From assembly GCF_026619415.1 (NCBI RefSeq), contig NZ_JAOVZR010000001.1:1240001-1304000 (forward strand): 64,000 nucleotides of DNA, given 5' to 3'. How positions within the stretch are numbered: the first letter of the stretch is position 1; every line of letters begins with the position of its first letter. Source of the stretch: Hoeflea algicola. GTDB lineage: Bacteria > Pseudomonadota > Alphaproteobacteria > Rhizobiales > Rhizobiaceae. The notes under the pieces were generated by a model that was not told where the DNA came from, did no database searches, and saw only the letters and a program-made list of their open reading frames with translations. The position numbers and the translations under genes are program-made. This document shows, piece by piece, positions 11,347-54,882 of this stretch.

Positions 11347-11466
11347 CCAATTCGGTGCAGTTGAACGGGACGGCGGCAATATATGCGCGGGTTATGATAT
11401 ACATCAATGCTCCCCGTCGGGCTTTGGCTATCAATAGGGCACAACCCGATCAGCGGAGCACAACCC

Positions 11467-36516: not shown

Positions 36517-38382
36517 TCAAACACCCTTGCGCTGTTTGGCGCGGGTGGATTCCTGTTCTTCATGGGCGGCCCGGACCTTGGGATTATCGGTGACATGCGG
36601 GGTACCGACCTCCCACCAGGTGTGGCCCTGATCAGTCCAGGCATCATGGGATGCGACCTTCATGCAGATCACGTAGGTGCGCTCGCTAGCCTTGGCGCGC
36701 TTGAATGCTTCGCCCAGATCAGCCGGGCTGTCGACGGTTTCGGCAATCGCTCCCATCGAAGCGGCATGGGCTTCGAAATCGACGGCGAAAGGCTCGGCAA
36801 CCGTTGGGCAATCGGCAATCAGATTGTTAAAGCTCTCATTGCCGGTGTTATTCTGCAGCTTGTTGATGACGGCGAAACCGCCATTGTCGAGCATCAGGAT
36901 GATCAGCTTCTTGCCCGTCAGCACCGAGGAATAGATATCGGAATTCATCAACAGATAGGCGCCGTCGCCAACCAGCACGATGGTATCGTTATCGGGCTCG
37001 CGTTCGCATTGCGCAATGCGCGCGCCCCAGCCGCCGGCAATTTCGTAGCCCATGCAGGAAAAGCCGAATTCGACATCGACGGTGCCCAATGACAGCGTCC
37101 GCCAGTTGGCGGTGACTTCGGCCGGCAGCCCGCCCGAGGCGGTCACCACCCGGTCGCGCGGGTCGCACAGCGCATTGACCACGCCGATAGCCTGGGCATA
37201 GGAATTGGGACCATTGCCATAGGCGACATTGTCGGCCACGTAATCGTTCCAGACCTTGCGCTGGTCTTGCGCAAAACCGCTCCAGTTGGCTGGTGCGCTG
37301 TAACCTTCGAGCGCCGTGGCGAGCGCCGTAATGCCGAGCTTCGCGTCGCCCACGACTGGCAACGACAGGTGCTTGGCGGCATCGTGGCGGGCGGCATTGA
37401 GCGAGATGATGCTGGCGGATTTGTCGAACGCGGTCCAGGAACCGGTGGTGAAATCCTGCATGCGGGTGCCAATGGCCAGGACCACATCGGCTTTTTCGGC
37501 AACCGCATTGGCGCTGTCGGAGCCGGTGACGCCGACCGGGCCGATATTGAGCGGATGATCGTTGAGAAGGTTGGCGCGTCCGGCAATGGTTTCGATCACC
37601 GGGATCTGGTGGGCTTCGGCAAAGGCCGCCAGTTCAGCCGTGGCGCGCGAATACTGCACCCCGCCGCCGGCAATGATAACAGGCCGTTCGGCGGATTTGA
37701 GAATGGCGGCCGCCTCGGCGATCTCCACCACATCCGGTGCCTGACGGCGGATCCGGTGGATCTTTTTGGCAAACATCTCCACCGGGTAATCATAGGCCCA
37801 GCCCTGCACATCCTGCGGCAGGCCCAGAAAAGCAGGCCCGCAATCGGCCGGATCGAGCATGGTGGCAATGGCCGCCGGCAGCGACTGGATGATCTGCGCG
37901 GGATGGGTGATGCGGTCCCAGAAGCGGGTGACTGCCTTGAAGGCGTCGTTCACGCCGAGCGTCGGATTGCCGTAATGCTCGAGCTGCTGCAGCACCGGAT
38001 CGGGCAGACGGGTGATGAAGATATCGCCGCACAGCATCAGCATCGGCAACCGGTTGGCATGCGCCAGTGCTGCGGAAGTGAGTAGGTTGGCAGTGCCCGG
38101 TCCCGCAGAGGCGGTGCAGAACATGAAGCGCTGCCTCAACCATTGCTTGGAATAGGCAGCAGCGGCAAAGCCCATGCTCTGCTCGTTCTGGCCACGATAA
38201 AGCGGCAGCACATCGCGATGGTCATAAAGCGCCTCACCCAAGCAAGTGACATTGCCATGGCCGAAAATGCCAAAGCCGCCGCCGCACAGCCGCATCTCCT
38301 CGCCATCGATCTCGATGAACTGGTTGGCAAGATAGCCAATGATTGCCTGCGCCGTGGTCAGGCGGATGGTGTCCTGGGTCAT
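36517..38382 (-). CDS. iolD: 3D-(3,5/4)-trihydroxycyclohexane-1,2-dione acylhydrolase
   Basis: A 621-residue thiamine-diphosphate enzyme that opens the inositol-derived ring to 5-deoxyglucuronate. The N-terminal TPP domain has the catalytic Glu in LYRGQNEQSMGF and FCTASAGPGTANL. The central domain resembles acetolactate synthase-type enzymes (AGGGVQYSRA), and the C-terminal domain has the TPP/Mg motif GDGAYLLMNSDIYSS followed by NNGGF-like DNGGFAVINK. I chose the ATG at 38382 (MTQDTIRLTTAQAI), with GGGAGG 11 bases upstream; a start at 38403 is possible. It heads the minus-strand inositol operon just downstream of the palindromic operator. Confidence 0.94.
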   Translation of the reverse strand: MTQDTIRLTTAQAIIGYLANQFIEIDGEEMRLCGGGFGIFGHGNVTCLGEALYDHRDVLPLYRGQNEQSMGFAAAAYSKQWLRQRFMFCTASAGPGTANLLTSAALAHANRLPMLMLCGDIFITRLPDPVLQQLEHYGNPTLGVNDAFKAVTRFWDRITHPAQIIQSLPAAIATMLDPADCGPAFLGLPQDVQGWAYDYPVEMFAKKIHRIRRQAPDVVEIAEAAAILKSAERPVIIAGGGVQYSRATAELAAFAEAHQIPVIETIAGRANLLNDHPLNIGPVGVTGSDSANAVAEKADVVLAIGTRMQDFTTGSWTAFDKSASIISLNAARHDAAKHLSLPVVGDAKLGITALATALEGYSAPANWSGFAQDQRKVWNDYVADNVAYGNGPNSYAQAIGVVNALCDPRDRVVTASGGLPAEVTANWRTLSLGTVDVEFGFSCMGYEIAGGWGARIAQCEREPDNDTIVLVGDGAYLLMNSDIYSSVLTGKKLIILMLDNGGFAVINKLQNNTGNESFNNLIADCPTVAEPFAVDFEAHAASMGAIAETVDSPADLGEAFKRAKASERTYVICMKVASHDAWTDQGHTWWEVGTPHVTDNPKVRAAHEEQESTRAKQRKGV

Positions 38383-38477
38383 GGGCAACGAGACCTCCCT
38401 CATGCCGGGCATCCCGGGCCGGTTTTCCCCGGGCGCGAAAATGCCGCTTGCGAAACTTCGAGTCCAAGGATACAAAA

Positions 38478-38495
38478 TTTGCAACCGGTTGCAAA
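38478..38495. promoter_or_regulatory. LacI-type operator TTTGCAACCGGTTGCAAA
   Basis: A perfect 18-bp palindrome with a central CCGG-flanking CG step sits between divergent iolD (minus, start 38382) and the Gfo/Idh/MocA gene (plus, start 38520). Half-site GCAACC with a central CG is the usual form bound by LacI/GalR regulators. The same core recurs at 50531-50550 next to a LacI gene, so both halves of the catabolic locus are probably repressed by that protein. Confidence 0.85.
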
Positions 38496-38519
38496 CTGAA
38501 TCTCGAGACGGGCCCTGTT

Positions 38520-39632
38520 ATGAGCGAAATCGGCATTGGCATCATAGGCGGCGGCTACATGGGCAAGGCCCATGCGGTGGCCATGGCGAGCGTCGGCGCG
38601 GTATTTGACACGGCGCTGCGCCCCCGGCTGGAAATGGTCTCGGCCGGCTCTGCAGAGAGCGCCGAGCGCTATCGGGCTGTCTACGGGTTCAACCGCGCCG
38701 CGGGCGACTGGCAGGAACTGATTGCCGACCCGAAGGTCGAAGCCATCGTCATCGCCTCGCCGCAATCAACCCACCGCGCCATTGCCGAAGCAGCCTTTGC
38801 GCTCAACAAACCTGTACTGTGCGAAAAGCCGATGGGCGCGTCGCTGGAAGACAGCCGCGCCATGGTGGCGGCAGCGGAGAAAAGCGGCGCGGCCAATATG
38901 GTCGGCTTCAACTATATCCGCACCCCGGCGAGCCAGTTCGCCCGGCAACTGATCGCCGAGGGTGCGATTGGCGAAATCACCTGGTTTCGCGGCGAGCACA
39001 CCGAAGATTTCCTGGCCGACCCCGAAACACCCGCCAACTGGCGCACGACGGGTGACGCCAACGGCACGATGGGCGACCTCGCCCCGCACATGATCAACGC
39101 CGCCCTTGCGCTTGTCGGGCCGATCCGCTCGCTGATTGCCGAGGTCGAAACCGTTCACTCCACCCGCCCCGGCGGCACTGTCAGCAATGACGACCAGGGG
39201 CAGATGATGTGCCGTTTTGTCAACGGAGCGGGTAGCGGGGCAATGGGACAGATGCATTTCAGCCGCATCGCCACCGGCCGCAAGATGGGCTACGCCTACG
39301 AAATCACCGGCACCAAAGGCGCGATCCGCTTCGATCAGGAAGACCAGAACGCGCTCTGGCTTTATTCGATGGACGAGCCGGAAGCGACGCGCGGTTTTCG
39401 CAAGATCCTCACCGGCCCGGCGCATCCAGATTACCTGCCGTTCTGCCAGGGCCCCGGCCATGGCACCGGCTACCAGGACCAGATCATTATCGAGGCAAAA
39501 GATTTTCTTCACGCCATCGAAACCGGCAAGCCGGTGTGGCCGACCTTTCGCGACGGGCTTGCGGTCAACGAAATTGTCGCCGCGGCGATGGCTTCATCCA
39601 AATCCAGATCATGGCAGACACTCGACGCCTAG
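38520..39632 (+). CDS. Gfo/Idh/MocA-family dehydrogenase, inositol-locus
   Basis: A 370-residue NAD(P)-dependent dehydrogenase. The N-terminal Rossmann motif is IGIGIIGGGYMGKAHAVAM, and the catalytic Lys is in VLCEKPMGASLED. The C-terminal domain has GDLAPHMINAALALVG with the conserved His. It is divergent from iolD and shares the palindromic operator, so it probably handles an inositol isomer or keto-inositol intermediate. The specific substrate (scyllo-, chiro- or a modified inositol) cannot be told. It starts the plus-strand run that includes the TIM-barrel gene and another dehydrogenase. Confidence 0.87.
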   Translation: MSEIGIGIIGGGYMGKAHAVAMASVGAVFDTALRPRLEMVSAGSAESAERYRAVYGFNRAAGDWQELIADPKVEAIVIASPQSTHRAIAEAAFALNKPVLCEKPMGASLEDSRAMVAAAEKSGAANMVGFNYIRTPASQFARQLIAEGAIGEITWFRGEHTEDFLADPETPANWRTTGDANGTMGDLAPHMINAALALVGPIRSLIAEVETVHSTRPGGTVSNDDQGQMMCRFVNGAGSGAMGQMHFSRIATGRKMGYAYEITGTKGAIRFDQEDQNALWLYSMDEPEATRGFRKILTGPAHPDYLPFCQGPGHGTGYQDQIIIEAKDFLHAIETGKPVWPTFRDGLAVNEIVAAAMASSKSRSWQTLDA

Positions 39633-39713
39633 GCCCCTGTGCACATAGGCCGAAAACACAGGCAGCCCCAGAATTCGGGCAGGCCAGAAATACGAGCAGG
39701 AAGGACATCCTCG

Positions 39714-40604
39714 ATGACTATCAGAATTGGCAATGCACCCTGCTCCTGGGGTGTGGAATTCGCAAGCGACCCGCGCAATCCGGCCTGGCGCACGGTGTTA
39801 AGCCAATGCGCCGAGGCCGGCTATACTGGCATCGAACTCGGCCCGGTCGGCTTCATGCCGGAGGACCCGGCAGTGCTTGCCGAAGCGCTTGATGAAAACG
39901 CGCAGGAACTGATCGGCGGCGTGGTGTTCCGCGCCTTTCACGACGCAGACCAGTGGGACGACGTGATGGATGGCGCCGTGCGCACCTGCAAGGCGCTCAC
40001 CGCCCATGGCGCGCAGCATCTGGTGCTGATCGACTCGATCTCGCCACGCCGCGCACCGACCGCCGGCCGCGCCGATCAGGCCGAGCAGATGGACAACGCT
40101 GAATGGACGGCGTTCCGCGAGCGCATCGCCACCGTGGCAAAACTCGGCGCGGAGGAATATGGCCTCACCGTCGGCATCCACGCCCACGCCGCGGGCTTCA
40201 TGGATTTCGAGCCCGAACTCGAGCGGTTGCTCGACGAAGTTGACGAGAAGATCCTGAAGATCTGCTTTGACACCGGCCACCATTCCTATGCGGGGTTTGA
40301 TCCGGTGAGCTTCATGAAGCGCCATATCGACCGCATTTCCTACATGCATTTCAAGGACATCGATCCGGTTGTCAAAGCCAGCGTGCTCGAACACGGCACC
40401 GGTTTCTACGACGCCTGCGGCCAGGGCATTTTCTGCAATCTCGGCGACGGCGATGTCGATTTCGCTTCCGTGCGGCAGATCCTTCTCGATCATGGCTTTG
40501 AAGGCTGGTGCACGGTCGAACAGGATTGCGATCCGCTGCTCGACCCCGATCCGGTCGGTGATGCCAAAGCCAACCGCGACTATCTGCAATCCATCGGATT
40601 TTGA
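39714..40604 (+). CDS. TIM-barrel sugar isomerase/epimerase (IolE/IolH/IolI-like)
   Basis: A 296-residue xylose-isomerase-like TIM-barrel protein. The start MTIRIGNAPCSWGVEFA and the metal-binding segments are visible: IELGPVGFMP, VGIHAHAAGFMD, CFDTGHHSYAG (Asp and His ligands), MHFKDIDP and CTVEQDCDP (C-terminal Glu). Relatives in inositol clusters are annotated IolE (2-keto-inositol dehydratase), IolH or IolI (isomerase). It probably fills the dehydratase step, since no other iolE candidate is in the window, but I would not fix the reaction. The ATG at 39714 follows AGGAAGGA. Neighbours are two dehydrogenases on the same strand, 82 and 10 bp away. Confidence 0.82.
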   Translation: MTIRIGNAPCSWGVEFASDPRNPAWRTVLSQCAEAGYTGIELGPVGFMPEDPAVLAEALDENAQELIGGVVFRAFHDADQWDDVMDGAVRTCKALTAHGAQHLVLIDSISPRRAPTAGRADQAEQMDNAEWTAFRERIATVAKLGAEEYGLTVGIHAHAAGFMDFEPELERLLDEVDEKILKICFDTGHHSYAGFDPVSFMKRHIDRISYMHFKDIDPVVKASVLEHGTGFYDACGQGIFCNLGDGDVDFASVRQILLDHGFEGWCTVEQDCDPLLDPDPVGDAKANRDYLQSIGF

Positions 40605-40614
40605 GGATACGGCC

Positions 40615-41772
40615 ATGACAAAGCTCAAATGGGGCATGATCGGCGGCGGCGAAGGCAGCCAGATCGGCCCGGCACACCGGCTTGGCGCCGGCCTTGACGG
40701 CGAATTCGAATTTTCAGCCGGCGCACTTGATCACCGCCCCGAGGCCGGTCGAGACTATGGCCAGCGGCTGGGGCTTGCGCCCGACCGCGCCTATGGCGAC
40801 TGGCGCGAGATGCTGGAGGGCGAACGAAACCGCTCCGATCGCGTCGATCTGGTCACTGTCGCCACGCCTAACGCCACCCATTACGAAATCACCAAGGCCT
40901 ATCTCGAGGCCGGTTTTCACGTGCTCTGTGAAAAGCCGATGACCATGACGATTGAGCAAGGCGAGGACATTGTCCGCACTGCCAAGGCAACCGGAAAGAT
41001 CTGCGCCGTCAATTACGGCTATTCCGGCTATTCGCTGGTCCGCCACATGAAGGCGATGGTGGCGCGCGGCGATCTCGGCAAGATCCGGCTGGTCAAGGCC
41101 GAGTTCGCCCATGGCCATCATGCCGATGCGGCAGATGCAAACAATCCGCGGGTGCGCTGGCGTTATGATCCGGCCCAGGCGGGCGTCTCGGCACAATTTG
41201 CCGATTGCGGCATTCACGCGCTGCACATGGTGAGCTTCGTCACCGGCCAGGAAGTGACAAAACTTTCCGCCGACACTGTCTCCTGCATTCAAAGCCGGGT
41301 GCTCGAAGACGACGCCATGGTCAATTTCCGCATGGACGGCGGCACGGTCGGACGGCTCTGGACCTCGTCCATCGCCATCGGCCGCCAGCACGGGCTGACG
41401 CTGCAGGTATTTGGTGAAAAAGGCGGGCTACGCTGGGCTCAGGAACAGCCCAACCAGCTTTACTGGATGCCGCTCGGCGAACGGTTGCAGACCATCGAGC
41501 GAGGCGAGGCGAACCTTTCGCCCGAGGCCGATCGCACCTCTCGCGTCACCATCGGCCACGCCGAAGGCATGCCGCTGGCCTTTGCCAATATCTATCACGA
41601 CCTCAGCGAAGCGATCCGGGCCACCAAGGAGGATCGCGCCATCGATCCCGCCGCCAATCTCTATCCCCGCGCCGAAGACGGCCTGCGCTCGATGGCCGCC
41701 GTGTTCGCGGTAGCCGAGTCGGGCAAGGCGGATGGGGAATGGGTCGACGCCCGCCCGCCGATGTTCAGGTAG
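40615..41772 (+). CDS. Gfo/Idh/MocA-family dehydrogenase, second copy in inositol run
   Basis: A 385-residue dehydrogenase. The Rossmann motif is MIGGGEGSQIGPAHRLG, and the catalytic Lys lies in VLCEKPMTMTIEQ. The C-terminal part has FADCGIHALHMVSFVTGQ with the conserved His pair. It is distinct from the gene at 38520 and from iolG, so three different family members sit in this locus. The GGGEGSQIGPAH opening is seen in homologues often placed in inositol or rare-sugar clusters. It likely oxidises a second isomer or reduces a keto intermediate, allowing isomer interconversion. It ends the plus-strand run, with a 10-bp gap after the TIM-barrel gene. Confidence 0.87.
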   Translation: MTKLKWGMIGGGEGSQIGPAHRLGAGLDGEFEFSAGALDHRPEAGRDYGQRLGLAPDRAYGDWREMLEGERNRSDRVDLVTVATPNATHYEITKAYLEAGFHVLCEKPMTMTIEQGEDIVRTAKATGKICAVNYGYSGYSLVRHMKAMVARGDLGKIRLVKAEFAHGHHADAADANNPRVRWRYDPAQAGVSAQFADCGIHALHMVSFVTGQEVTKLSADTVSCIQSRVLEDDAMVNFRMDGGTVGRLWTSSIAIGRQHGLTLQVFGEKGGLRWAQEQPNQLYWMPLGERLQTIERGEANLSPEADRTSRVTIGHAEGMPLAFANIYHDLSEAIRATKEDRAIDPAANLYPRAEDGLRSMAAVFAVAESGKADGEWVDARPPMFR

Positions 41773-42120
41773 GGATAAACCGGCCAACCAGAATGGTTTT
41801 GTCTAGGCTCAGTGCCGAACTCCGGTCATTGGCGCACCTGTATTCCGGTGGCAGGAGCAACATGACGGGTGGCGGGAAGCATCCCTTCGCAGCGATGCCC
41901 ACCGAGGTCTGTGATGCCGGACTTTTCCGTCGTTCAAGGTCCTACGAAATCAGTCCTGCATTCCCTACTGGCCATGATGAGTCACACGTCGGCGGGATTC
42001 ATGTCTTCTCCGATTCAGGCCGTTTTACTTACACCATTAAAGAGTATTCACTACAAAATTTGATATAACGCTCAATCCGTGCATTAATTTCATCCGTAAA
42101 TTAAAACAGGGACGATTGAT
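41773..42120. other. Intergenic gap before the BA14K gene
   Basis: These 348 bp become AT-rich towards the right (42000-42120), probably holding the BA14K promoter. No gene, palindrome or RNA was recognised. Confidence 0.4.
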
Positions 42121-42552
42121 ATGCGAAATTTACGAATGATTTCAGCCGTTGCGTTGCTCAGTTTTGGAGTAGCAACATTGGCTTCTACTGGAGCAAACGC
42201 GCAATTCCCAGGTCATGCCCCCTTGATTCAAGGTGCAGTGACAGGTGCGGATGCCGACAACGAGGCAACAGTTATACAGGTCAGGAATCGCAAAAGGCAC
42301 AATCGACGGAGAGGCCATCGAGGAAGAAACCACGGCGCAGAAGCGGCCGTTGGAATTCTTGGAGCCATCATTGGTGGGGCGATAATTGCCAATGAGGCCA
42401 ACAACCGCCGCGATCGCCGTGATCGCCGCCATATAAGCGCTGATAGCCATGTGGATTGGTGTTATGACCGTTACAGGTCTTATCGGGAAAGAGATAATAC
42501 TTATCAGCCATACGAAGGTGGCCGCAGACAGTGCAATTCGCCATACTATTGA
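42121..42552 (+). CDS. BA14K-family secreted protein
   Basis: A 143-residue protein with a signal peptide (MRNLRMISAVALLSFG, cleaved after GANA). A very basic middle (RKRHNRRRGHRGRNHGAEA), a glycine/alanine-rich membrane-like stretch (AVGILGAIIGGAIIANEA) and a C-terminal BA14K motif follow: HVDWCYDRYRSYRERDNTY then RRQCNSPYY, with two conserved cysteines. The founding protein is a Brucella 14-kDa immunoreactive, lectin-like protein; the true role is unclear. The gene uses more A/T-ending codons than its neighbours, so it may have come in by transfer or be under different constraints. A strong terminator follows. Confidence 0.87.
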   Translation: MRNLRMISAVALLSFGVATLASTGANAQFPGHAPLIQGAVTGADADNEATVIQVRNRKRHNRRRGHRGRNHGAEAAVGILGAIIGGAIIANEANNRRDRRDRRHISADSHVDWCYDRYRSYRERDNTYQPYEGGRRQCNSPYY

Positions 42553-42573
42553 TAGTTGACTGCAAAGATGTCG

Positions 42574-42607
42574 AGAGGCCCGAAAACTGTTTTCGGGTCT
42601 CTTTTTT
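42574..42607 (+). terminator. Rho-independent terminator after BA14K gene
   Basis: The arm AGAGGCCCGAAAAC (42574-42587) pairs with GTTTTCGGGTCTCT (42589-42602, one G-T pair), leading into a run of six Ts. Very strong. Confidence 0.9.
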
Positions 42608-42740
42608 GTGGTTTGCAGGCATGAGACCAGCTCAACGGTTCAACACCTGATCGTAAATGCCTGTGTCATATCCGGTTGAAGACGCAGATACCGTCAGGCG
42701 AGTTCATCTTCAACTGCAGCATTGGCCCAACCTTCCCCCT

Positions 42741-44365
42741 TCACCCCTCGAGCCCGGCCTTGCGCAGGCCTTCGAGGATGTGGATCCGGTCCTCCGCGGG
42801 TACGTTCCATTTGTCCATTTCGGCTGCCGCCGAGACGCCGGGGCGAACCTCGTGCATACGTGCCAGCGCATCGGGCGCTTCGGTGCGGCCAAGCTGGCCC
42901 AGCGCCGCGGCGCTGATCAGGTGGGTCCAGAAGAAATCCGGCATCGAGATGCGCTGCATGTCGATCAGCGTTTCCTCGTAATCACGCTCGCGGTAATGCA
43001 GCCGCGCGAAGCTGAAATGATACCAGCCCGGATGCAGCGGATTGAGCGCCTGCGCCCGCCGCGACAGCGGCACGCCGCGGTCGAAAGCGCCCATGAAGGA
43101 GAGGTAGTGGCCGACTTCGGCGAGAATTTCCGGGTCGGTCGGGTTGAGGTCGAGCGCGCGCGCAGCCTCGGCCTCGAACTTGCCGATGTCCTTGCGGAAA
43201 TAATGCACTATCGCGAGCCAGCAATGGGCATAGGCGCTGTGCGGATCAAGCTGCACTGCCTTCAGCGCCATCTCGAGCGCCCGTTCAATCGGCTCGGGCC
43301 GCGGATTGGCGGCAAACCGGTGCTCGGCGAGATAGACATTGGCAAGTAACGCATGCGCCTCGGCGTAATTCGGATCGAGCGCGATCGCCTTTTCCAAGAG
43401 ATCGCGCGCCTCGGCATGCATCGCCTCGTTGAGCGTCGCGGTATAACGCCGGGCGTGCAGCAGGCAATCATAGGCGTCGAGTTCGGCCGGGCTTTTTCTC
43501 AGCGCCCGGGTGAGCGCCGTGTCCTGCATCCTGACGCCGAGCGATGCGGCGATCATCTGCGTGACCGCGTCCTGGACAACAAAAATGTCGCCCATCGGCC
43601 GGTCGTAGCGATCGGCCCAGAGCGACACGCCGGTAGCCGCCTCGATCAGTTGCACCGCCACCCTCAGCCGTTCGCCCTCGCGGCGCACGCTGCCATCAAC
43701 GATATAATCGGCACCAAGCCGGGCGGCAATTTCCGGCAGCGGCGCGTCGCGGCTCTTGAAGTGAAACGAGGAGCCGCTGGCAATCACCCGGAGTTCGCGG
43801 AAATGCGTGAGGTTGGAGATGATGTCTTCGGTCAGTCCGTCGCAGAAATATTCGTCCAGACCGGCGCTGGCGATCTTGAGCGGCAACACCGCCAGCACCG
43901 GCATCACAGCGGCCTGGTGCGTATCGGTTGCCGCAGCCGGTGGCGGCATATCGGCGATCAAGACGCGCGCGGGACCAGGATCGGCGTGCGGGTCGGCGGC
44001 ACCACCCTGCCCGGCCTCGGTTTCAGAAGTAACTCCGGCATCTTCACTATCCTCGCCGTCGCAACTGAGTTGGGCCACAAAACGGAACCCGCGGCGCGAA
44101 ATGGTGCGGATAACCTGCTGCGCCTCGCCGCTGTCGCCGACCGCGCGCCGCGCCGCAAAGATACGGCTCGACAGCGTCGTGTCGGAAACCGCGCGGCCAT
44201 CCCAGACCGCGGCGATCAGTTCGTCGCGGCTGACGACATGGTCGCGATTTTGTATCAGGTGCAGCAGGACGTTGAACACCTGCGGCTCGATCGAACCGGC
44301 TTGCCGTGCTGGCGCAGCTCAAAGATCGACGGATCGATGGCAAAGGCGCCAAACCGGTAAATCAT
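42741..44365 (-). CDS. Winged-helix regulator with TPR repeats (CadC/adenylate-cyclase-like), frameshifted near 44290
   Basis: A cytosolic-type regulator. The N-terminus from the ATG at 44365 (MIYRFGAFAIDPSIFELRQH) is the start of an OmpR-like winged helix, and the rest of that domain (VFNVLLHLIQNRDHVVSRDELI) continues in another frame, so a single base is missing near 44290-44294. Joined, it is about 541 aa. After the DNA-binding domain come a linker, a TolB-like N-terminal region (VLPLKIASAGLDEYFCDGLTEDII) and tetratricopeptide repeats (YAEAHALLANVYLAEH and repeats to about 500). This architecture is common for uncharacterised regulators in rhizobia, often annotated as adenylate cyclase though no cyclase domain is present. 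It ends at 42741. Confidence 0.8.
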
Positions 44366-44491
44366 TGATGTCCAATCTATTCCTGACGGAAAATCGCAGG
44401 TTTCCAAATGTAAACTCAATCCCTTCGTCAAGCAACAACAGCAATTTTCTCTAGGCTCATCTGAAGCACTTGAACCTGGAAGGAAATTCGC

Positions 44492-45094
44492 ATGACCTGG
44501 TCACTCAAAGGCACCTATTTCGAAAGCTGCAATTGCGAAACCGCCTGCCCTTGTATGTTTTTGAGCCCGCCTACCGAGGACGATTGCACGGCGCTGGTCG
44601 GCTGGCATATCGATGAGGGCACCGACGAGGGTGTGTCGTTGTCGGGTCTCAATGTCGCACTCGCCGTGCATTCGCCCGGACCGATGGCCACCACCCAGTG
44701 GAATGTCGCCGTCTATGTCGACGCACGCGCCGACGAGGCCCAGAACGGCAGCCTGATGAAGATCTTTGGCGGCCAGGGCGGCGGCCACCCGGCGCGGCTC
44801 GCCAGCCATATCGGCAAGATCCTCGGTGTCCGCTCGGTGCCGATCGAGTTTACTGCCAGCAACGGCAAATACGGGCTCACGATCCCCAGGATCGCCGATG
44901 TCGAAATCGAGGCGATCACCGGCCAGGGCGACGGCCCGGTGACCATCTCCGGCCACCCGCTGTGCATCGCCCCGGGCTTTGACGGAACCGTGGCGCGAGC
45001 CAGCAAGAACGTCTACCAGGATCACGGCATGGAATGGGGTCTGACCGGAAAGACCGGGGTGTTCTCGCCGTTTGCCTATCAGAGCGAACAATGA
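44492..45094 (+). CDS. DUF1326 domain protein
   Basis: A 200-residue cytosolic protein with the DUF1326 fold. It begins MTWSLKGTYFESCNCETACPC, where the closely spaced cysteines (C-N-C-x3-C-x-C) suggest a metal site, and continues with WNVAVYVDARAD and RSVPIEF. The function of this family is not known to me. The downstream DUF2182 membrane protein starts within its stop codon (ATGA), and the two families are repeatedly found together in bacteria, so they likely form one metal-linked system. It starts at 44492 with GGAAGGAA upstream. Confidence 0.85.
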   Translation: MTWSLKGTYFESCNCETACPCMFLSPPTEDDCTALVGWHIDEGTDEGVSLSGLNVALAVHSPGPMATTQWNVAVYVDARADEAQNGSLMKIFGGQGGGHPARLASHIGKILGVRSVPIEFTASNGKYGLTIPRIADVEIEAITGQGDGPVTISGHPLCIAPGFDGTVARASKNVYQDHGMEWGLTGKTGVFSPFAYQSEQ

Positions 45095-45900
45095 CAGCCC
45101 CGCAAGGCATCACCCCCGGCGCCGGAATGGGCGCTGGGGCAGCACGCCTCACCCCGGCGCGGCTTGCGATCCTGCTCGGCGGCCCGACCGTGCTCGCGCT
45201 GGCAAGCTGGATCTACCTCGGCATGATGATCGGCGACATGTCGATCATCCCCGGCATGAAGGCGATGATGATGCCCGGGATGATGTTCACCCCGGCACCG
45301 CTGGCAGGGCTGTTCCTGATGTGGGCGGTAATGATGGCGGCGATGATGCTGCCGACAGCCGCGCCGATGATCATGGCCTATGCGCGCATGCAGGCGCTGG
45401 ACCGGGCACGCGGCGCCGGCTGGCAGCCGGTGTGGATGTTTTCAGGCGGTTATGTCGTGGCCTGGGCCAGCTTCAGCCTCATCGCCGCACTGTTGCAGGC
45501 GGGTCTCACGCATCTCGCCTTGATGTCGCCGATGACGATGAAGGCCGGATCGGGGCCGCTTGCAGGCACCATCCTGATTGCCGCAGGGCTCTACCAGTTC
45601 ACTCCGCTCAAGCAGGCCTGCCTCAGCCTGTGCCGCACGCCGCTGCATTTTTTGATGACCGAATGGCGCGACGGAAATCTGGGTGCGCTCACAATGGGCT
45701 GGCGCCACGGCCTGTTCTGCATCGGCTGTTGCTGGGCGTTGATGGCGCTGCTGTTTGTCACCGGCGTCATGAACACCGCCTGGATCCTCGCCATCACGCT
45801 CTATGTGCTGATGGAAAAGACCGTGCCGGGTGGCAAGGCATTCTCGCGGCTTGCCGGCTTGGCGTTGACGGCAACCGGCCTGTGGGTGTTAGTCGGTTGA
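45091..45900 (+). CDS. DUF2182 predicted metal-binding membrane protein
   Basis: A 269-residue integral membrane protein, DUF2182. Methionine-rich segments are striking: MMIGDMSIIPGMKAMMMPGM, then MWAVMMAAMMLPTAAPMIMA, which is typical of the family and suggests soft-metal binding (copper-like). Later helices carry QFTPLKQACLSLCRTP and HGLFCIGCCWALM, with cysteines in or near membrane segments. About seven helices are predicted. It is translationally coupled to the DUF1326 gene by ATGA. The overall biochemical role is not established, so a metal-transport or metal-insertion function is inference. Confidence 0.87.
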   Translation: MTAPQGITPGAGMGAGAARLTPARLAILLGGPTVLALASWIYLGMMIGDMSIIPGMKAMMMPGMMFTPAPLAGLFLMWAVMMAAMMLPTAAPMIMAYARMQALDRARGAGWQPVWMFSGGYVVAWASFSLIAALLQAGLTHLALMSPMTMKAGSGPLAGTILIAAGLYQFTPLKQACLSLCRTPLHFLMTEWRDGNLGALTMGWRHGLFCIGCCWALMALLFVTGVMNTAWILAITLYVLMEKTVPGGKAFSRLAGLALTATGLWVLVG

Positions 45901-45916
45901 ACGACGCTCCGCACAG

Positions 45917-45939
45917 CCCGCGCCCGATCATGGCGCGGG
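45917..45939. terminator. Hairpin between convergent DUF2182 and rhodanese genes
   Basis: CCCGCGCC (45917-45924) pairs with GGCGCGGG (45932-45939). It lies between convergent stop codons, which suits a bidirectional terminator, but no clear T-run follows. Confidence 0.45.
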
Positions 45940-45965
45940 TCAATGGCGGTCAGGCGTCTGGTTGA

Positions 45966-46349
45966 TCAGCCGGATTTCTTCATCAGCTTCGGCGCGCCGG
46001 TGGCCATGTCGGTGCCGGTATATCCAAATCCGGCTTCCTTCCAGGCGCCGAAGCCGCCCTCCATATGGGCGATACGCTCGGTCCCCGCAGCCAGGCATTT
46101 TTCGGCCACCATCTTTGATCGCACACCCGAGCCGCAGTGAAACACGATCCGTTTTTCGGCCTGCCCCGGCATGTGTCCCGGATCAAACGCCTGCATCGGC
46201 GCCAGCAGCGCACCATTGATGCGCTCGAAACTGTATTCCTGTGGCGTGCGCACGTCGATCAGCACAATTTCGTCACGGTCGAATGCCTCGGCGACCTCCT
46301 GTGGCGTCCAGGTTTCCAGCGTGCCGTTGTGGGCGGATTCAGTTTTCAT
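45966..46349 (-). CDS. Rhodanese-like sulfurtransferase
   Basis: A 127-residue single-domain rhodanese. The active-site loop is VFHCGSGVRS with nucleophile Cys72, and the N-terminal strand is VLIDVRTPQEYSF. Such proteins move sulfur as a persulfide. It lies 12 bp downstream of the Blh-like persulfide dioxygenase on the same strand, so the two probably form a sulfide/persulfide detoxification operon: the dioxygenase oxidises glutathione persulfide and the rhodanese handles sulfane sulfur. Confidence 0.9.
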   Translation of the reverse strand: MKTESAHNGTLETWTPQEVAEAFDRDEIVLIDVRTPQEYSFERINGALLAPMQAFDPGHMPGQAEKRIVFHCGSGVRSKMVAEKCLAAGTERIAHMEGGFGAWKEAGFGYTGTDMATGAPKLMKKSG

Positions 46350-46361
46350 GATGGCTCCTTT

Positions 46362-47261
46362 TCAGAACTTGTTAAGCGGAATCTTGAGATAGCTTTCCCC
46401 GTCGGCCTCGGGGTCAGGGGCACGGCCTGCACGCAGGTTCATCTGCAGCACATGCAGCATCCTGTCAGGCAGGCTCAACGACTTGTCGCGCGCCTCTCGC
46501 CGATCCACATAGGCATCCTGGCCGACGCCACCACCAATATGGGCATTGTGCCGGCGTTGCTCAATGACGGTGGATTCCCAGGCGGGCTGTTTGCGGTAAT
46601 CGGTGCCATAGTCATGGCCGACAAACAACCGGGTCTGCTCCGGCAGCGCCAGGATCGCCTGCAACGACTGGTACAATTCGGCTGCCGAACCGCCCGGAAA
46701 ATCCGCCCGCGCGGTGCCGACATCGGGCTGCATGAAGGTGTCATGGACAAAGGCCGCATCTTCGCCCACCACATAGGTGATCGATCCCAGCGTGTGCCCG
46801 GGCGACAGCATCACCCGCACCGGCAGCGATCCGATACTGAAACGGTCGCCGTCGGCAAACAGCCGCGCAAAATCGCGATCTGGATCAAACCCATGGGGCA
46901 AGTGATAAAGTCCGCGCCAGAGCTCGGCGATCTCTTTAATCTTGGTGCCAATGGCGTTGGGGGCGCCCAGTCGCTGACCGAGAAAATACGAGGCCATCAA
47001 ATGATCAGCATGCGGATGGGTGTCGAGCACCCACTCGATCTCGACGTGTTCGGAGCTGATAAAGCGAAGGATTTCCTCGACGCCTGCGGGATTGAGGGAG
47101 GCGCTGGCCGGATCAAACCCCATCACAACGTCAATCAGCGCGCCCTTTTTGGTGTTCGGGTCGACGACCAAATACTGGATGCTGCCGCTGTCAGCATCAT
47201 AAAAACCGGTGACATCCGCCGATCTTGGTCCGTGCGACGGGCTGGTGCGTGACAAGGCCAT
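46362..47261 (-). CDS. MBL-fold persulfide dioxygenase-like hydrolase (Blh/ETHE1 type)
   Basis: A 299-residue metallo-beta-lactamase-fold protein. The metal motif THPHADHLMAS (His82, His84, Asp86, His87) is complete. Further ligands are in LSPGHTLGSI and FVHDTFMQPDVGTARADFPGG, a segment typical of ETHE1/Blh persulfide dioxygenases, and FVGHDYGTD. The family is associated with oxidation of glutathione persulfide to sulfite, and with BigR-controlled sulfide response in Rhizobiales; no bigR is seen here. The ATG at 47261 is preceded by GGAGGC. AT-rich DNA at 47290-47325 likely holds its promoter. It is cotranscribed with the rhodanese gene. Confidence 0.88.
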   Translation of the reverse strand: MALSRTSPSHGPRSADVTGFYDADSGSIQYLVVDPNTKKGALIDVVMGFDPASASLNPAGVEEILRFISSEHVEIEWVLDTHPHADHLMASYFLGQRLGAPNAIGTKIKEIAELWRGLYHLPHGFDPDRDFARLFADGDRFSIGSLPVRVMLSPGHTLGSITYVVGEDAAFVHDTFMQPDVGTARADFPGGSAAELYQSLQAILALPEQTRLFVGHDYGTDYRKQPAWESTVIEQRRHNAHIGGGVGQDAYVDRREARDKSLSLPDRMLHVLQMNLRAGRAPDPEADGESYLKIPLNKF

Positions 47262-47451
47262 GGTGCCTCCTTGGGTATTCCGAACAGGACTGAACATATG
47301 TTAATTTCTTAATGTATCAACCACCGAATAGTTCCATGTGATGTCGCGCACTTCACGATTTCCTCCATGAAATCCGCGGCGCTTGCCGGTACGCACCCGG
47401 CTTGGGCGAAAATTTCAGCGACAATGGCCACCCGGAAACCGCGCGAGCGAG

Positions 47452-48435
47452 TCAGTGCTTGCCCTTATGCTCTTGCTCCTCTCCCTCCCCGTGATCGTGC
47501 ACATGCCCAGATCCTGGCTGCGGCTGTCGTTCATCGCCGATCTGTTCGGGATCGATACAGGCATGGGCGGAGCATTCCAGTTCCAAGGTCGAATGGGCAA
47601 TGCTGAATTCATCCTTGAGAACACATTTGACCTCCGCCTTGATCGCGTCGGCATCGTTCCAGCGCCCGGCGGCGACAACCAGATGCGCCTGCACCGCATT
47701 GTCGTGTTCCTGCATTTGCCACAGATGGAAATGATGCACGCCGGTGACCCCGTCCATCCGCTGCATCGCATCCAGCACTTTCTCGGTCTTCAGGTCGACC
47801 GGACTTCCCAGCATCAGGATGCGGATGACATCGCCGATCTCGGAAAACGACATCCATAAAATATAACCGGCGATCAGCAGCGTGACGAGCGGATCGATCC
47901 AGCGCCAGTCGTACAGAATGATCAGCGTGCCTGCGACAATCACCGCGATCGAACCAAGCGCATCGGCGACATTGTGCACAAATGCAGCCCGGATATTGAC
48001 GCTTTCCTTCGACAGCGAATAGGTCAGCAGCGCTGTCGCCGCATCGACGATGAGGGCGATGCCGGCGATGATCACCACCAGCCAGCCATCGACACCTTCC
48101 GGTTCGATGAACCGCATCACCGCCTCGTAGATCAGGTAGAGCCCGATGACGATCAGCGTGGTGTAATTGATAAGCGCGGCAACTACTTCGGCACGGCCAT
48201 AGCCGAACGTCATGGTCGAATCCGCCGGTCGCCGCGCAATCTTGCGGGCCAGAAACGCGATCACCAGCGACAGCGCATCGGAAAGATTGTGGATCGCGTC
48301 GGCGATCATCGCCAGGCTGCCCGACAGGATGCCGCCGATGATCTGTGCCACCGTCAGCCCAAGGTTGACGACCACCGCCCAGAAAACCCGCGCGTCGCCG
48401 GCATTAGGGTCTACGTGATGATGATGGCCTGCCAT
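47452..48435 (-). CDS. Cation diffusion facilitator (zinc-type) transporter
   Basis: A 327-residue CDF efflux protein with six helices. The first residues are His-rich (MAGHHHHVDP). Metal-site motifs are HNLSD in helix 2 (His49 and Asp53) and HNVAD in helix 5, the HxxxD pattern of zinc transporters. The C-terminal cytosolic domain ends with another His/Glu-rich tail (HVHDHGEGEEQEHKGKH). It probably exports zinc, and possibly cobalt or cadmium, using the proton gradient. It is divergent from the globin gene and downstream of no obvious metal regulator, so control is unknown. Confidence 0.92.
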   Translation of the reverse strand: MAGHHHHVDPNAGDARVFWAVVVNLGLTVAQIIGGILSGSLAMIADAIHNLSDALSLVIAFLARKIARRPADSTMTFGYGRAEVVAALINYTTLIVIGLYLIYEAVMRFIEPEGVDGWLVVIIAGIALIVDAATALLTYSLSKESVNIRAAFVHNVADALGSIAVIVAGTLIILYDWRWIDPLVTLLIAGYILWMSFSEIGDVIRILMLGSPVDLKTEKVLDAMQRMDGVTGVHHFHLWQMQEHDNAVQAHLVVAAGRWNDADAIKAEVKCVLKDEFSIAHSTLELECSAHACIDPEQIGDERQPQPGSGHVHDHGEGEEQEHKGKH

Positions 48436-48635
48436 GCTGCTGTCCCGCCTGTGGGCTGATTTCAGTGACTCATAGGCTTAATCTCTCCAGTGGCTAGAGA
48501 TTCAAGAAATAAGATCATCTCTCTCTTTTGTGGAAAGACCGTCCACCGTACCGCAATTGCGGAGCGCATGCCCGGTTCCTAGATATGCCGTTGGAGCCGA
48601 ATTGCAAAACCCTGTGCGGGTGAAGGACCCAACGT

Positions 48636-49391
48636 GTGACCAAGTTCAACTATCCCACCTACCCGACGCGGCATGGCTACATGACCGAACAGATCCAGCG
48701 TGCTTACATTTTCGCCGCAATCGAGAAGAAAGTGCTTCCGGTCGATGCGCATCGGATGGCGCAGATCATCTCGCTTGAAGCCTCCAACGACAGAACCAAA
48801 CCGATCCAGTTCTGGCAGTTGTATTCCGTGCTGGGCCCGGAGCGGATCGTTGCCATTGTGAGCGATTTTTACACCCGCGTGTTTGCCGACGAGGACTGGT
48901 TTGCATCGGCGTTTGCCCGCATCGGCGGCATCGAACACCACATCAACACACAGTCAGCGATGTGGATCGACGTCATGGGCGGCGGTCCCGCCTATCATCG
49001 CGGCGATTTCCGGCTGAACTTCCACCATACCCACAACGCCATTCAGGTAATGAACGACAAGGGCGCGGCCCTGTGGACCAAACTGATGTTGCAGACCCTG
49101 GATGCGTGCGCCCACCACATGACCGGCGATCCGCGCGCGCGCACCGCCGTCAACACCTTCCTGACTCACTTTATGGGAAAATACGCCCAGGAATTTGATT
49201 TTGAAAACAAAAGTTTCTTCGGAGACACCAATCCGCCGATCAAGCGCAAGCTCAATTTCATGAAAATGACCACCGAAGCGATCGAGGCGCTGACGGAAGA
49301 AGAATTGCGGGAGGCACTCGCCGAGCAAGGCGTCGACGACTCGCAATATCCCGCCAAGCAGGATCTGGTGAACAAGGCGCAGATGCTGTGA
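48636..49391 (+). CDS. Truncated-hemoglobin-like protein with SAP-like C-terminal tail
   Basis: A 251-residue protein. The middle (about 60-185) looks like a globin: VSDFYTRVFADEDWF (distal Tyr in helix B), MWIDVMGGGPAYHRGDFRLN (helix E-type), and FHHTHNAIQ with a candidate proximal His. This is the pattern of truncated or group II/III-like bacterial globins. The N-terminal 60 residues are extra. The C-terminal 35 residues (TEEELREALAEQGVDDSQYP) resemble a SAP-like helix-extension-helix motif, an unusual addition for a globin. It starts with GTG at 48636, with AAGGA upstream. It is divergent from the CDF gene and convergent with lacI. Ligand and role (oxygen or NO) are inferred. Confidence 0.72.
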   Translation: MTKFNYPTYPTRHGYMTEQIQRAYIFAAIEKKVLPVDAHRMAQIISLEASNDRTKPIQFWQLYSVLGPERIVAIVSDFYTRVFADEDWFASAFARIGGIEHHINTQSAMWIDVMGGGPAYHRGDFRLNFHHTHNAIQVMNDKGAALWTKLMLQTLDACAHHMTGDPRARTAVNTFLTHFMGKYAQEFDFENKSFFGDTNPPIKRKLNFMKMTTEAIEALTEEELREALAEQGVDDSQYPAKQDLVNKAQML

Positions 49392-49435
49392 GGCGACCCG
49401 GCCGGCGTCAACCAACCAGCGCCAGCTAACCGGAT

Positions 49436-50434
49436 TCAGGCAACCGGTTTCAAGGTCCCTCGTTCGATCACCCGGCAAGGAAACAGCCGGGCCTCGGGGT
49501 AGCGGTCCGGCGCCACCAGCATTGAGACGATCAGTTCGATCGAGGAATCGATGATCTGCTTGATTGGCTGGCGGATGGTGGTCAGGTTGATGTTTTCCCA
49601 ACCGGCCATCTCCATGTCGTTGAGCCCGATCAGGCCGATGTCGTCGGGCACGACGAGCCCCGAACCGGTGATCGCGCTGAGCGCGCCGATGGAGAGCACA
49701 TCATCGCCGCAGAAATAAGCCTGCGCCGGCTTGTTCTTGAGCCGCCTGAGCATCTCCGCCCGCCCTGCCTCGAAGGAATAGGCCTCGGCAAACGAATGCC
49801 GCAGGGTGATCTCGGAATGGCGGGACAACTCCTCGGCAAAGCCCTTTAACCGGTCCTGTGTCGATGTGGCAGCCTCCGGGCCGCCCAGAAACGCCACGTC
49901 GGTATAACCGCGCCGCGCCAGTTCGCGCGCTGCCATCCGTCCGCATTCGACATTGTCGATGCCGACCACATGGACTTCGGGTGAACTGGCGTGGCGACCG
50001 AAACTGTGAACCACCGGAACGCCGGCGTCACGGAACGCCTTGGCAAAGCCCGGCGGCAACGTCGAGGACGCCACCACCACCCCGTCAACGGAGTATTGCC
50101 TGAGCATCCGTACCGAATTTGCGGGATCGGTTTCATCCGACAGGTTGACCAGCAGCGGCCGCAATCCCCGGTCCTGCAGCCCGCGGGTAAACAGGTCGAA
50201 TACCTCGAGAAAGATCGGGTTGTGAAAATTGTTCGAGACCAGGCCGATCAGCTTTGTGCGGCCCGTTGTCAGGCTCGAAGCCAGCGCATTCGGGCTGTAA
50301 CCCAGCTCTTTGGCGGCCTTTTCGACCTTTTTGCGCATCTTCAGCGACACCGACGCACCATCGGTGAAGGTGCGGGAAACCGCGGCGCGCGACACGCCGG
50401 CGCGTTCGGCTACATCCTTGAGCGTTGGCGGCAT
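49436..50434 (-). CDS. LacI-family repressor, probable inositol regulator
   Basis: A 332-residue LacI/GalR regulator. The N-terminal helix-turn-helix is TLKDVAERAGVSRAAVSRTFTDGASVSLKMR, followed by the hinge ALASSLTTGRTKLIGLV. The C-terminal periplasmic-binding-like domain senses a ligand (VVHSFGRHASSPEVHVVGIDN, GLIGLNDMEMAGWENINLTT). It is divergent from the substrate-binding protein gene, with the palindrome TTTTGCAACCGGTTGCAAAA between them. The same palindrome core lies before iolD, so this is the likely repressor of both transporter and catabolic genes, with inositol or a derivative as inducer. It is probably also self-regulated. Confidence 0.9.
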   Translation of the reverse strand: MPPTLKDVAERAGVSRAAVSRTFTDGASVSLKMRKKVEKAAKELGYSPNALASSLTTGRTKLIGLVSNNFHNPIFLEVFDLFTRGLQDRGLRPLLVNLSDETDPANSVRMLRQYSVDGVVVASSTLPPGFAKAFRDAGVPVVHSFGRHASSPEVHVVGIDNVECGRMAARELARRGYTDVAFLGGPEAATSTQDRLKGFAEELSRHSEITLRHSFAEAYSFEAGRAEMLRRLKNKPAQAYFCGDDVLSIGALSAITGSGLVVPDDIGLIGLNDMEMAGWENINLTTIRQPIKQIIDSSIELIVSMLVAPDRYPEARLFPCRVIERGTLKPVA

Positions 50435-50530
50435 TGATACCTCTTTTTACTCTGACCTGGTCGGTGGCACCCGGCATTACCCCGCATTACTGCGCAAAAA
50501 AACGCACGAAAGCAAGAATTTCAGATTTCA

Positions 50531-50550
50531 TTTTGCAACCGGTTGCAAAA
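50531..50550. promoter_or_regulatory. LacI-type operator, TTTTGCAACCGGTTGCAAAA
   Basis: A perfect 20-bp palindrome lies between the divergent LacI gene (start 50434) and the ABC transporter operon (start 50637), about 90 bp from each. It contains exactly the 18-bp palindrome found at 38478-38495. It is the strongest regulatory signal in the window. Confidence 0.9.
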
Positions 50551-53738: not shown

Positions 53739-53796
53739 GTCACATGCGTGACATCTGCTCTTGCCATTTGTGACATCACACAGAATAGTCTGTGTG
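53739..53796. promoter_or_regulatory. Dyads and direct repeats upstream of phnD-like gene
   Basis: Three signals are packed within 60 bp, ending 45 bp before the phnD-like start. They are the inverted repeat GTCAC-ATGC-GTGAC (53739-53752), two direct copies of GTGACATC exactly 22 bp apart (53748 and 53770), and the perfect 20-bp dyad CACACAGA-ATAG-TCTGTGTG (53777-53796). Two helical turns between the direct repeats suit a dimeric activator. The TGTCAC repeats on the minus strand are reminiscent of Pho boxes but the spacing differs; binding by PhoB is only a possibility. Confidence 0.45.
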
Positions 53797-53840
53797 GGAA
53801 CGAAACAAAACGAAACTCGACGCGAAACCGGAGGAAGATC

Positions 53841-54818: not shown

Positions 54819-54829
54819 TCCCTGCCCTC

Positions 54830-54862: not shown

Positions 54863-54882
54863 ACCTGATATGACGGGGCCTC

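What the first reader, a model, noticed from the sequence alone, without database searches (positions are those of the whole stretch)
38478..50550. One palindrome links an inositol catabolic locus and a remote ABC transporter through a LacI repressor
The 18-bp perfect palindrome TTTGCAACCGGTTGCAAA occurs between the divergent iolD and dehydrogenase genes (38478-38495) and, as a 20-bp perfect palindrome, between a LacI-family gene and a sugar-type ABC operon (50531-50550). Two perfect 18-mers this close are very unlikely by chance. This predicts a LacI-type inositol repressor rather than the RpiR-type IolR that I recall from S. meliloti, and it assigns the transporter's substrate.
Basis: partly seen in the sequence, partly recalled or inferred. 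Interest (0 to 1): 0.72.

Follow-up and report, generated by a model that had tools for sequence, protein, structure and literature searches.

The report
LacI-type inositol repressor and its operators
A single repressor protein very probably controls both the uptake and the breakdown of inositol in this marine bacterium through two identical 18-letter DNA sites; comparison of many genomes supports this well, but regulators of this general kind were already predicted for inositol.

Summary
Of 80 loci chosen for a LacI ortholog, all 64 with the divergent SBP gene carry the site beside it (<=2 mismatches), and all 70 with the dehydrogenase/iolE gene carry it there (<=3). Site and LacI ortholog co-occur: 16 of 17 genomes with the ortholog versus 0 of 44 without, and 19 of 26 versus 2 of 271 in a wider draw. 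The four most diverged orthologs, without a site, have a changed recognition helix. In G021 the cluster is split in three and each piece keeps a site. One correction: the transporter is not remote. In 55 of 80 loci the genes form one cluster; here 7.7 kb of other genes separates the halves. Palindrome arms lie at -35-like positions, suggesting promoter occlusion. LacI-type inositol regulators were already predicted in print (PMC4052901, Table 1). Binding and inducer are untested.

The parts
38478..38495 (.). Operator 1, TTTGCAACCGGTTGCAAA, 95 nt before iolD ATG (38382) and 24 nt before the dehydrogenase ATG (38520)
   Evidence: present in 70 of 70 orthologous regions at <=3 mismatches (54 exact)
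38467..38472 (-). Predicted -10 of the iolD promoter (TATCCT), 16 nt from the palindrome arm TTGCAA read as -35
   Evidence: TATCnT at this spacing in 61 of 61 orthologous regions used; the promoter is inferred
50531..50550 (.). Operator 2, 20-bp perfect palindrome between lacI and the SBP gene; its 18-bp core ends 97 nt before lacI ATG (50434) and 84 nt before the SBP ATG (50634)
   Evidence: in 64 of 64 orthologous lacI-SBP regions at <=2 mismatches (50 exact)
49436..50434 (-). LacI-family regulator (332 aa), proposed inositol repressor, probably autoregulated
   Evidence: PF00356 57.4 bits (cut-off 27) and PF13377; sequence P0001
50634..51584 (+). Periplasmic substrate-binding protein of the ABC transporter
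   Evidence: NF052284 rhizopine SBP 270 bits (below cut-off 420); nearest solved relative 4RU1
51662..52783 (+). ABC transporter permease
52785..53573 (+). ABC transporter ATPase (262 aa, single domain)
36517..38382 (-). iolD
   Evidence: TIGR04377 784.9 bits over cut-off 715
35676..36515 (-). PhyH-family (PF05721) dioxygenase inside the operon; optional
   Evidence: in 15 of 80 loci
34699..35679 (-). iolC, stand-alone kinase (326 aa)
   Evidence: TIGR04382 329 bits over cut-off 300; longer frames in most other family members
33828..34670 (-). iolB-like (variant: 144 bits, cut-off 205)
32989..33831 (-). Class II aldolase, likely IolJ
   Evidence: no equivalog over cut-off; published IolJ-like PGA1_c07220 in Phaeobacter inhibens (PMC9007349, passages)
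31995..32984 (-). iolG
   Evidence: TIGR04380 434 bits over cut-off 355
38520..39632 (+). Gfo/Idh/MocA-type dehydrogenase 1
   Evidence: best model NF052479, 279 bits, below cut-off 650
39714..40604 (+). iolE-like dehydratase (TIGR04379 174 bits, cut-off 290)
40615..41772 (+). Gfo/Idh/MocA-type dehydrogenase 2
41773..49435 (.). Intervening stretch with no inositol link seen (DUF1326, PpoB2, metallo-beta-lactamase fold, CDF transporter, globin); lacI and dehydrogenase 2 are adjacent in most relatives outside Hoeflea

Best explanation
The LacI-family protein (49436-50434) is the repressor of one inositol module. Without inducer its dimer binds the two identical palindromes. Operator 2 lies in the divergent lacI/transporter promoter region and operator 1 in the divergent iolD/dehydrogenase region; across relatives the TTGCAA arms sit at -35-like positions (17 nt from the best -10-like hexamer on both sides of operator 2; 16 nt from TATCnT on the iolD side of operator 1), so bound repressor would exclude RNA polymerase. 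When an inositol (or an early pathway product) binds the sugar-binding domain, the repressor leaves both sites; uptake (SBP-permease-ATPase), catabolism (iolDCBJG, iolE, dehydrogenases) and lacI itself are switched on together. Shown here: the sites, their conservation, co-occurrence with this LacI clade, and the recognition-helix change in four orthologs without a site. Inferred: binding, repression, promoter positions, inducer.
For: Only two sites in the genome, both here. 64 of 64 lacI-SBP and 70 of 70 dehydrogenase/iolE regions hold the site within 2 and 3 mismatches, while 30 composition-matched control palindromes never came below 4 in the same regions; information content 1.90-1.92 bits in the site versus 0.36-0.99 in flanks. 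Co-occurrence: 16/17 versus 0/44, and 19/26 versus 2/271. G021: LacI only 61% identical, cluster split over three contigs, each with one exact site. G057: besides the two sites of its cluster (one exact, one with 1 mismatch), a further exact site before the family-matching part of an mmsA/iolA-type gene on another contig. Seven loci with a different ABC operon (L045, L061, L071, L074, L085, L090, L093) have a site (0-2 mismatches) upstream of it. Orthologs without a site in G104, G140, G222, G300 have I or V at residue 16, which is R in 78 and T in 2 of the 80 loci. Plasmid collection: nine records carry the LacI ortholog; the five top-ranked of 44 records matched by the operator query are all among these nine.
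Against: No binding or expression data. G120 and G233 keep the conserved helix but have no site within 1 mismatch, and G029 (helix not examined) likewise; G029 and G120 show 2-3-mismatch versions (G233 not fetched). L084 has a LacI ortholog with no site before lacI and only a 3-mismatch one at iolD. Two genomes (G205, G276) have a 1-mismatch site without a LacI ortholog; the reversed-pattern control hits 4 of 297 genomes, so these may be chance. In the plasmid search one record of the best identity band was not listed and not seen, and 38 rhizobial-type records match at 80-90%. No sigma-70 promoter was found in the window itself by the consensus scan, and its hexamers at the expected places beside lacI and SBP are weak. 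One site in G057 stands near a TctC-type gene, not an inositol gene. IolQ of B. subtilis, a repressor of an inositol gene, did not respond to inositols in vitro (PMC5504672 abstract), so inositol as direct inducer is not certain.
Confidence: 0.9

Rival explanations
1. Another LacI-family paralog of the genome is the protein that binds the sites, and the adjacent lacI is a bystander.
For: The first look found 22 candidate relatives of the LacI protein in the genome, and LacI-family sites resemble each other.
Against: Presence of the site follows presence of this one ortholog across 61 and 297 genomes; a version of the site sits before this lacI gene even in L024, L025 and L096, where the SBP gene is not beside it (1, 2 and 4 mismatches; the L096 copy is a changed but still perfect palindrome); the recognition helix differs in four orthologs without a site.
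Confidence: 0.04
2. The LacI protein activates rather than represses (or does both), as proposed for FixV of Mesorhizobium loti, a LacI/GalR-family activator thought to sense an inositol derivative.
For: FixV precedent (PMC3538637, passages read).
Against: Arms of the sites lie at -35-like positions, a geometry that suggests occlusion; lacI is divergent and carries a site of its own, as is usual for autorepressors (general knowledge).
Confidence: 0.06
3. The substrate and inducer is not myo-inositol but another inositol or inosamine (scyllo-inositol, chiro-inositol, a methylated inositol).
For: The only family model the SBP hits is the rhizopine SBP, below its cut-off (270 of 420 bits); three different Gfo/Idh/MocA dehydrogenases and a PhyH dioxygenase in the module.
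Against: An IolJ-like protein of Phaeobacter inhibens, PGA1_c07220, was assigned to myo-inositol use from fitness data (PMC9007349 passages; its sequence was not compared here); the nearest solved SBP relative 4RU1 is, as I recall, a myo-inositol complex (the printed title is cut before the ligand).
Confidence: 0.3
4. The palindromes are chance or a mobile repeat.
For: None found.
Against: Expected 0.00 in shuffles; no other copy in the genome; positional conservation.
Confidence: 0.005

Closest known systems
Predicted LacI-type IolR regulators (Ravcheev et al. 2014, PMC4052901; passages read)
   Same: LacI family, inositol utilization; Table 1 lists 7 LacI groups for inositol with IolR as example; autoregulation is reported for 72% of the LacI factors studied
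   Different: The passages read give no motif or lineage for them; whether this clade is one of the seven could not be checked (supplements not available)
RpiR-type IolR of Caulobacter crescentus and Sinorhizobium meliloti (PMC2597717, PMC8877191; passages read)
   Same: Controls inositol catabolic genes and, in C. crescentus, an inositol ABC transporter through a shared palindrome
   Different: Unrelated protein family, motif GGAA-N6-TTCC; IolC of most other family members is a longer protein (fusion with DUF2090 inferred from PMC9007349, not scanned here)
IpsA of Corynebacterium (PMC3899939; abstract read)
   Same: LacI-type, binds a palindrome, released by myo-inositol in vitro
   Different: Activates inositol synthesis and controls cell-wall genes, not catabolism
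IolQ/DegA of Bacillus subtilis (PMC5504672; abstract read)
   Same: Repressor of an inositol dehydrogenase gene; LacI family as I recall it
   Different: Controls iolX; inositols did not release it in vitro
FixV of Mesorhizobium loti (PMC3538637; passages read)
   Same: LacI/GalR-family protein possibly sensing an inositol derivative
   Different: Activates nifA2; sequence not compared here
LacI gene beside a related transporter in Rhizobium etli CIAT 652 plasmid pC (L217)
   Same: Divergent LacI and SBP-permease-ATPase operon with xylose-isomerase-like and inositol dehydrogenase genes; SBP 40% identical; tandem sites TTGCTACCGGTTGCAA and TTGCTACCGGTAGCAA
   Different: LacI only 29% identical with a different recognition helix; the sites carry T where ours has A

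Membership tests
LacI family of regulators | N-terminal LacI helix-turn-helix plus periplasmic-binding-like domain | tested here: met
   PF00356 57.4 bits (cut-off 27), PF13377 99.2 (cut-off 26.5)
LacI family of regulators | Palindromic operator with central CG next to the regulator's own gene | tested here: met
   Site between lacI and SBP gene, centre CCGG
LacI family of regulators | The protein binds the palindrome and is released by a sugar-like effector | not testable with these tools
   needs gel shift and ligand assay
LacI-type IolR groups of PMC4052901 | Orthology to one of the seven groups | not testable with these tools
   supplementary tables not available; the passages give the count only
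RpiR-type IolR system | RpiR-family regulator beside the iol genes | tested here: not met
   Three PF01418 genes in the genome, none near this locus; best 29.5% identical to an iolC-linked RpiR of a relative
RpiR-type IolR system | GGAA-N6-TTCC before iol genes | tested here: not met
   In the window only at 7623 and 25612, away from the iol genes
Rhizopine SBP (NF052284) | Score over the curated cut-off | tested here: not met
   270.2 of 420 bits
myo-Inositol catabolic pathway | iolD, iolC, iolG over equivalog cut-offs | tested here: met
   784.9/715, 329.1/300, 434.2/355 bits
myo-Inositol catabolic pathway | iolB and iolE over equivalog cut-offs | tested here: not met
   144.2/205 and 174.3/290 bits; diverged variants in conserved synteny with iolD and iolC

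The most novel reading that the evidence does not exclude
A portable inositol module with its own regulatory code, separate from the RpiR/GGAA-N6-TTCC code, has spread across Rhizobiaceae, Rhodobacterales and Granulosicoccaceae, partly on plasmids, and coexists with an RpiR-type cluster in at least one Hoeflea genome (G015). Its palindromic operator is built from two divergent -35 boxes, so one repressor dimer shuts two promoters at once, and a PhyH dioxygenase in some copies extends it to modified (for example methylated) inositols.
Probability: 0.3. Interest if true: 0.55.

Novelty: new member of a known kind. Interest (0 to 1): 0.36.

Why it matters
It gives a precise, testable operator and regulator for inositol use in marine Alphaproteobacteria, where annotation carried over from Sinorhizobium would name the wrong regulator family. 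It ties a generic 'sugar' ABC transporter to inositols, and it shows how a cluster broken by insertion can be recognised from its operators. It also offers a natural comparison: two unrelated regulators beside two versions of one pathway within one genus.

Tried and rejected
Chance or mobile repeat: rejected by shuffles and genome count. A second copy of the pathway under RpiR in this genome: the second iolD-like gene (C1:3814029) lies in a different cluster (aminotransferase, GntR-type regulator, RbsBAC-type transporter) without an exact GGAA-N6-TTCC; set aside. The two 3-mismatch genomic matches: no module gene near them; the genes around L113 were not identified, so a minor role there is not excluded. 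Consensus promoter scan: nothing; the promoter argument rests on comparison, whose shuffles do not correct for relatedness and whose -10 weights were my choice; on the dehydrogenase side of operator 1 the best hexamer was not at a canonical spacing. The LacI structure model was too poor to use (mean pLDDT 60.7); the SBP model was moderate (69.6). Literature on this particular regulator: the listings showed no paper on it (one search listed 30 of 35, 15 of 79); subscription papers are not held. One search (dioxygenase and inositol) showed nothing useful in its listing.

Rows left out: one search printed recognition helices for 24 of the 26 LacI loci (L138 and L145 not given; L135 gave no match). 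In one search, 28 of the 39 iolC matches became loci used for the RpiR count. One search scanned the first genes of only some of the loci with another ABC operon.

Errors of mine: one search translated a wrong frame and was dropped. In some searches the query for dehydrogenase 1 began one base early (wrong frame), so its printed identities are wrong; positions held, and with the right frame gave the same operator counts. Searches used those positions.
Full report
WHAT IS THERE. The palindrome TTTGCAACCGGTTGCAAA is at 38478-38495 and 50532-50549; the second copy extends to a perfect 20-mer at 50531-50550. Shuffles give 0.00 expected at <=3 mismatches. In the 5,177,435-base genome there are two exact copies, none with one or two mismatches, and two places with three; no module gene was found in 4 kb around the latter. 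The genus is Hoeflea, judged from the named loci whose LacI is 88-90% identical.

GENES. Leftward from operator 1: iolD, a PhyH-family dioxygenase, iolC, an iolB variant, a class II aldolase (IolJ-like) and iolG. Rightward: a Gfo/Idh/MocA dehydrogenase, an iolE-like gene and a second dehydrogenase. Operator 2 separates lacI from SBP-permease-ATPase; a phosphonate-type ABC operon follows. Operator 1 is 95 nt before the iolD start and 24 nt before the dehydrogenase start; operator 2 is 97 nt before lacI and 84 nt before SBP (start codons chosen by me).

NOT REMOTE. A scan of species genomes with the LacI protein gave 498 relatives, of which the best 80 were kept, so these loci are chosen for LacI similarity. 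In 55 of 80 all of LacI, SBP, permease, ATPase, both dehydrogenases, iolE, iolD, iolC, iolB and iolJ (over 45% identity) lie in one stretch of at most 21 kb (stretches cut by contig ends count as misses). Of 66 loci outside Hoeflea where the gap from lacI to dehydrogenase 2 can be measured, 54 have less than 300 bases, 11 have 0.4-1.9 kb and one has 4.5 kb; in the four measurable Hoeflea loci it is 4.3-8.7 kb and in the window 7.7 kb. The simplest reading is one cluster that was opened by an insertion in Hoeflea; no tree was built.

CONSERVATION OF THE SITES. All 64 loci with the divergent SBP gene have the site within 300 bases before lacI: 50 exact, 13 with one and 1 with two mismatches. Of 16 loci without that SBP gene, 3 have it at <=2 mismatches. 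In all 70 loci with a dehydrogenase 1 (67) or, failing that, iolE (3) gene the site lies beyond its start: 54 exact, and 12, 2 and 2 with one, two and three mismatches; 10 loci have no such gene in the stretch. Thirty shuffled palindromes of the same composition never did better than 4 mismatches in the same regions. Information content is 1.90-1.92 bits per position in the site against 0.36-0.99 in flanks, and changes fall almost only on the two outermost bases of each end. Of 134 sites at <=1 mismatch in these loci 4 lie elsewhere: upstream of another ABC operon (L061, L071, L090) or near iolC (L087).

CO-OCCURRENCE. Among 61 genomes (own and relatives), 17 have a LacI ortholog (E <= 1e-80), 16 have the site at <=1 mismatch, and all 16 are among the 17; none of the 44 others has it. 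In a draw of 297 genomes of the order, 26 have LacI, 21 the site, 19 both; LacI only in 7 (G104, G120, G140, G222, G233, G241, G300), site only in 2 (G205, G276); the reversed control pattern hits 4 of 297. Fisher P values are 8e-14 and 3e-22, not corrected for relatedness; 25 genomes (G000 and G037-G060) are in both draws. Four of the seven LacI-only orthologs (50-54% identical: G104, G140, G222, G300) carry I or V at recognition-helix residue 16; of the other loci printed all carry R except one T (G292, site present) and one K (G241). In the 80 loci it is R in 78 and T in 2. G241, G120 and G029 show 2-3-mismatch versions; G233 was not fetched.

NATURAL EXPERIMENTS. In G021, with a LacI only 61% identical, transporter/lacI, iolG-D/iolE and dehydrogenase 1 lie on three contigs, each with one exact site. 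G057 has one exact and one 1-mismatch site in its cluster, plus an exact site on another contig in front of the part of a reading frame that matches methylmalonate-semialdehyde dehydrogenase (TIGR01722, 685 bits; start codon not settled), the iolA-type last step; a fourth, 1-mismatch site near a TctC-type gene is unexplained. Seven loci (L045, L061, L071, L074, L085, L090, L093) have a non-orthologous ABC operon with a site of 0-2 mismatches upstream; the SBPs scanned in L061, L074 and L090 resemble MglB/RbsB, and the first genes of those operons match no family. L084 has another transporter without such a site. Two Hoeflea loci (L024, L025) have no inositol transporter at this place, a PhnD-like gene instead, and a site with 1-2 mismatches. 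In the plasmid collection nine records carry the LacI ortholog. An operator query matched 44 records, of which 10 were listed; the five top-ranked (97.5-100% identity) are all among the nine; one more record of the best band was not listed, and 38 match at 80-90%. Ruegeria sp. TM1040 (both exact) and Rhizobium sp. WL3 (one exact, one with 1 mismatch) show both sites in place.

HOW IT PROBABLY WORKS. Aligned on the site, the best -10-like hexamer lies 17 nt from the near TTGCAA arm on both the lacI and the SBP side (64 loci), and TATCnT stands 16 nt from the TTGCAA arm on the iolD side in 61 of 61 loci used; the dehydrogenase side gave no peak at a canonical spacing. The window has TATCCT at the iolD position; its lacI and SBP sides are weak. 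The arms therefore look like -35 elements, and a bound LacI dimer would occlude the promoters. The consensus scan of the window itself found no promoter. The inducer is inferred: LacI proteins commonly sense the substrate or an early product (general knowledge).

RPIR CONTRAST. The window has no GGAA-N6-TTCC near the iol genes. In 28 iolC loci of other family members (long IolC frames) an RpiR homolog lies near iolC in 16, counting the query's own locus, two of them partial at the locus end. Within Hoeflea, all 13 genomes with LacI have the low-scoring iolB variant; of 5 without LacI, 2 have only the high-scoring iolB (G007, G009) and 3 have none (G005, G006, G008; G007 and G008 are 75-77% complete); 4 genomes have both (G003, G010, G011, G015). 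Six stretches around high-scoring iolB genes have no LacI site at <=3 mismatches; 3 of 6 have an adjacent RpiR homolog (36-40% identical), 1 has an iolC-D-E-B cluster without one, and 2 show no other clear iol gene nearby; only 1 has GGAA-N6-TTCC.

NOVELTY. LacI-type inositol regulators are in print: seven LacI groups with the example IolR (PMC4052901, passages), IpsA and IolQ (abstracts) and, for an inositol derivative, FixV (passages). I saw no paper on this clade in the listings, but could not open the supplement that would settle it. Hence: new member of a known kind, very well supported, modest surprise.

Noticed in passing
L108 (own genome C1:3804001-3824000), iolD-like gene at 9975-11885: A second iolD-like gene (691.5 bits, just under the cut-off 715) with a class III aminotransferase, a TIM-barrel protein, a Gfo/Idh dehydrogenase, an RbsB/A/C-type transporter and a divergent GntR-type regulator with a GlcD-like gene; looks like an amino-inositol catabolic cluster.
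   Followed up: partly
window 35676-36515 (-): PhyH-family dioxygenase gene inside the iol operon between iolD and iolC, 81-93% identical where present, in 15 of 80 loci; possibly acts on methylated or otherwise modified inositols.
   Followed up: partly
L114 6186-6203 (G057:C2): Exact operator in front of the family-matching part of an mmsA/iolA-type gene far from the cluster, a likely added regulon member in one species.
   Followed up: partly
L115 6183-6200 (G057:C2): One-mismatch site around the start of a BLUF-domain gene and before a TctC-type binding-protein gene; no inositol link seen.
   Followed up: partly
Hoeflea genomes G003, G007, G009, G010, G011, G015: High-scoring iolB genes apart from the LacI module; three of six stretches carry an RpiR homolog next to an iolC-D-E-B cluster.
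   Followed up: partly
L217 5002-5038 (Rhizobium etli CIAT 652 plasmid pC): A 29%-identical LacI beside a related transporter has two tandem look-alike sites with the same ACCGGT core but TTGCT/AGCAA arms; 38 plasmid records match the operator query at 80-90%.
   Followed up: partly
window 53748-57313 (+): Phosphonate-type ABC operon (PhnD-like, PhnC, two PhnE) directly behind the inositol transporter; in L024 and L025, which lack the transporter here, a PhnD-like gene comes close to lacI.
   Followed up: no
L021-L099, region between operator 1 and iolD: About 16 nt after TATCnT a conserved CAAG follows (information content 1.6-2.0), of unknown meaning.
   Followed up: no
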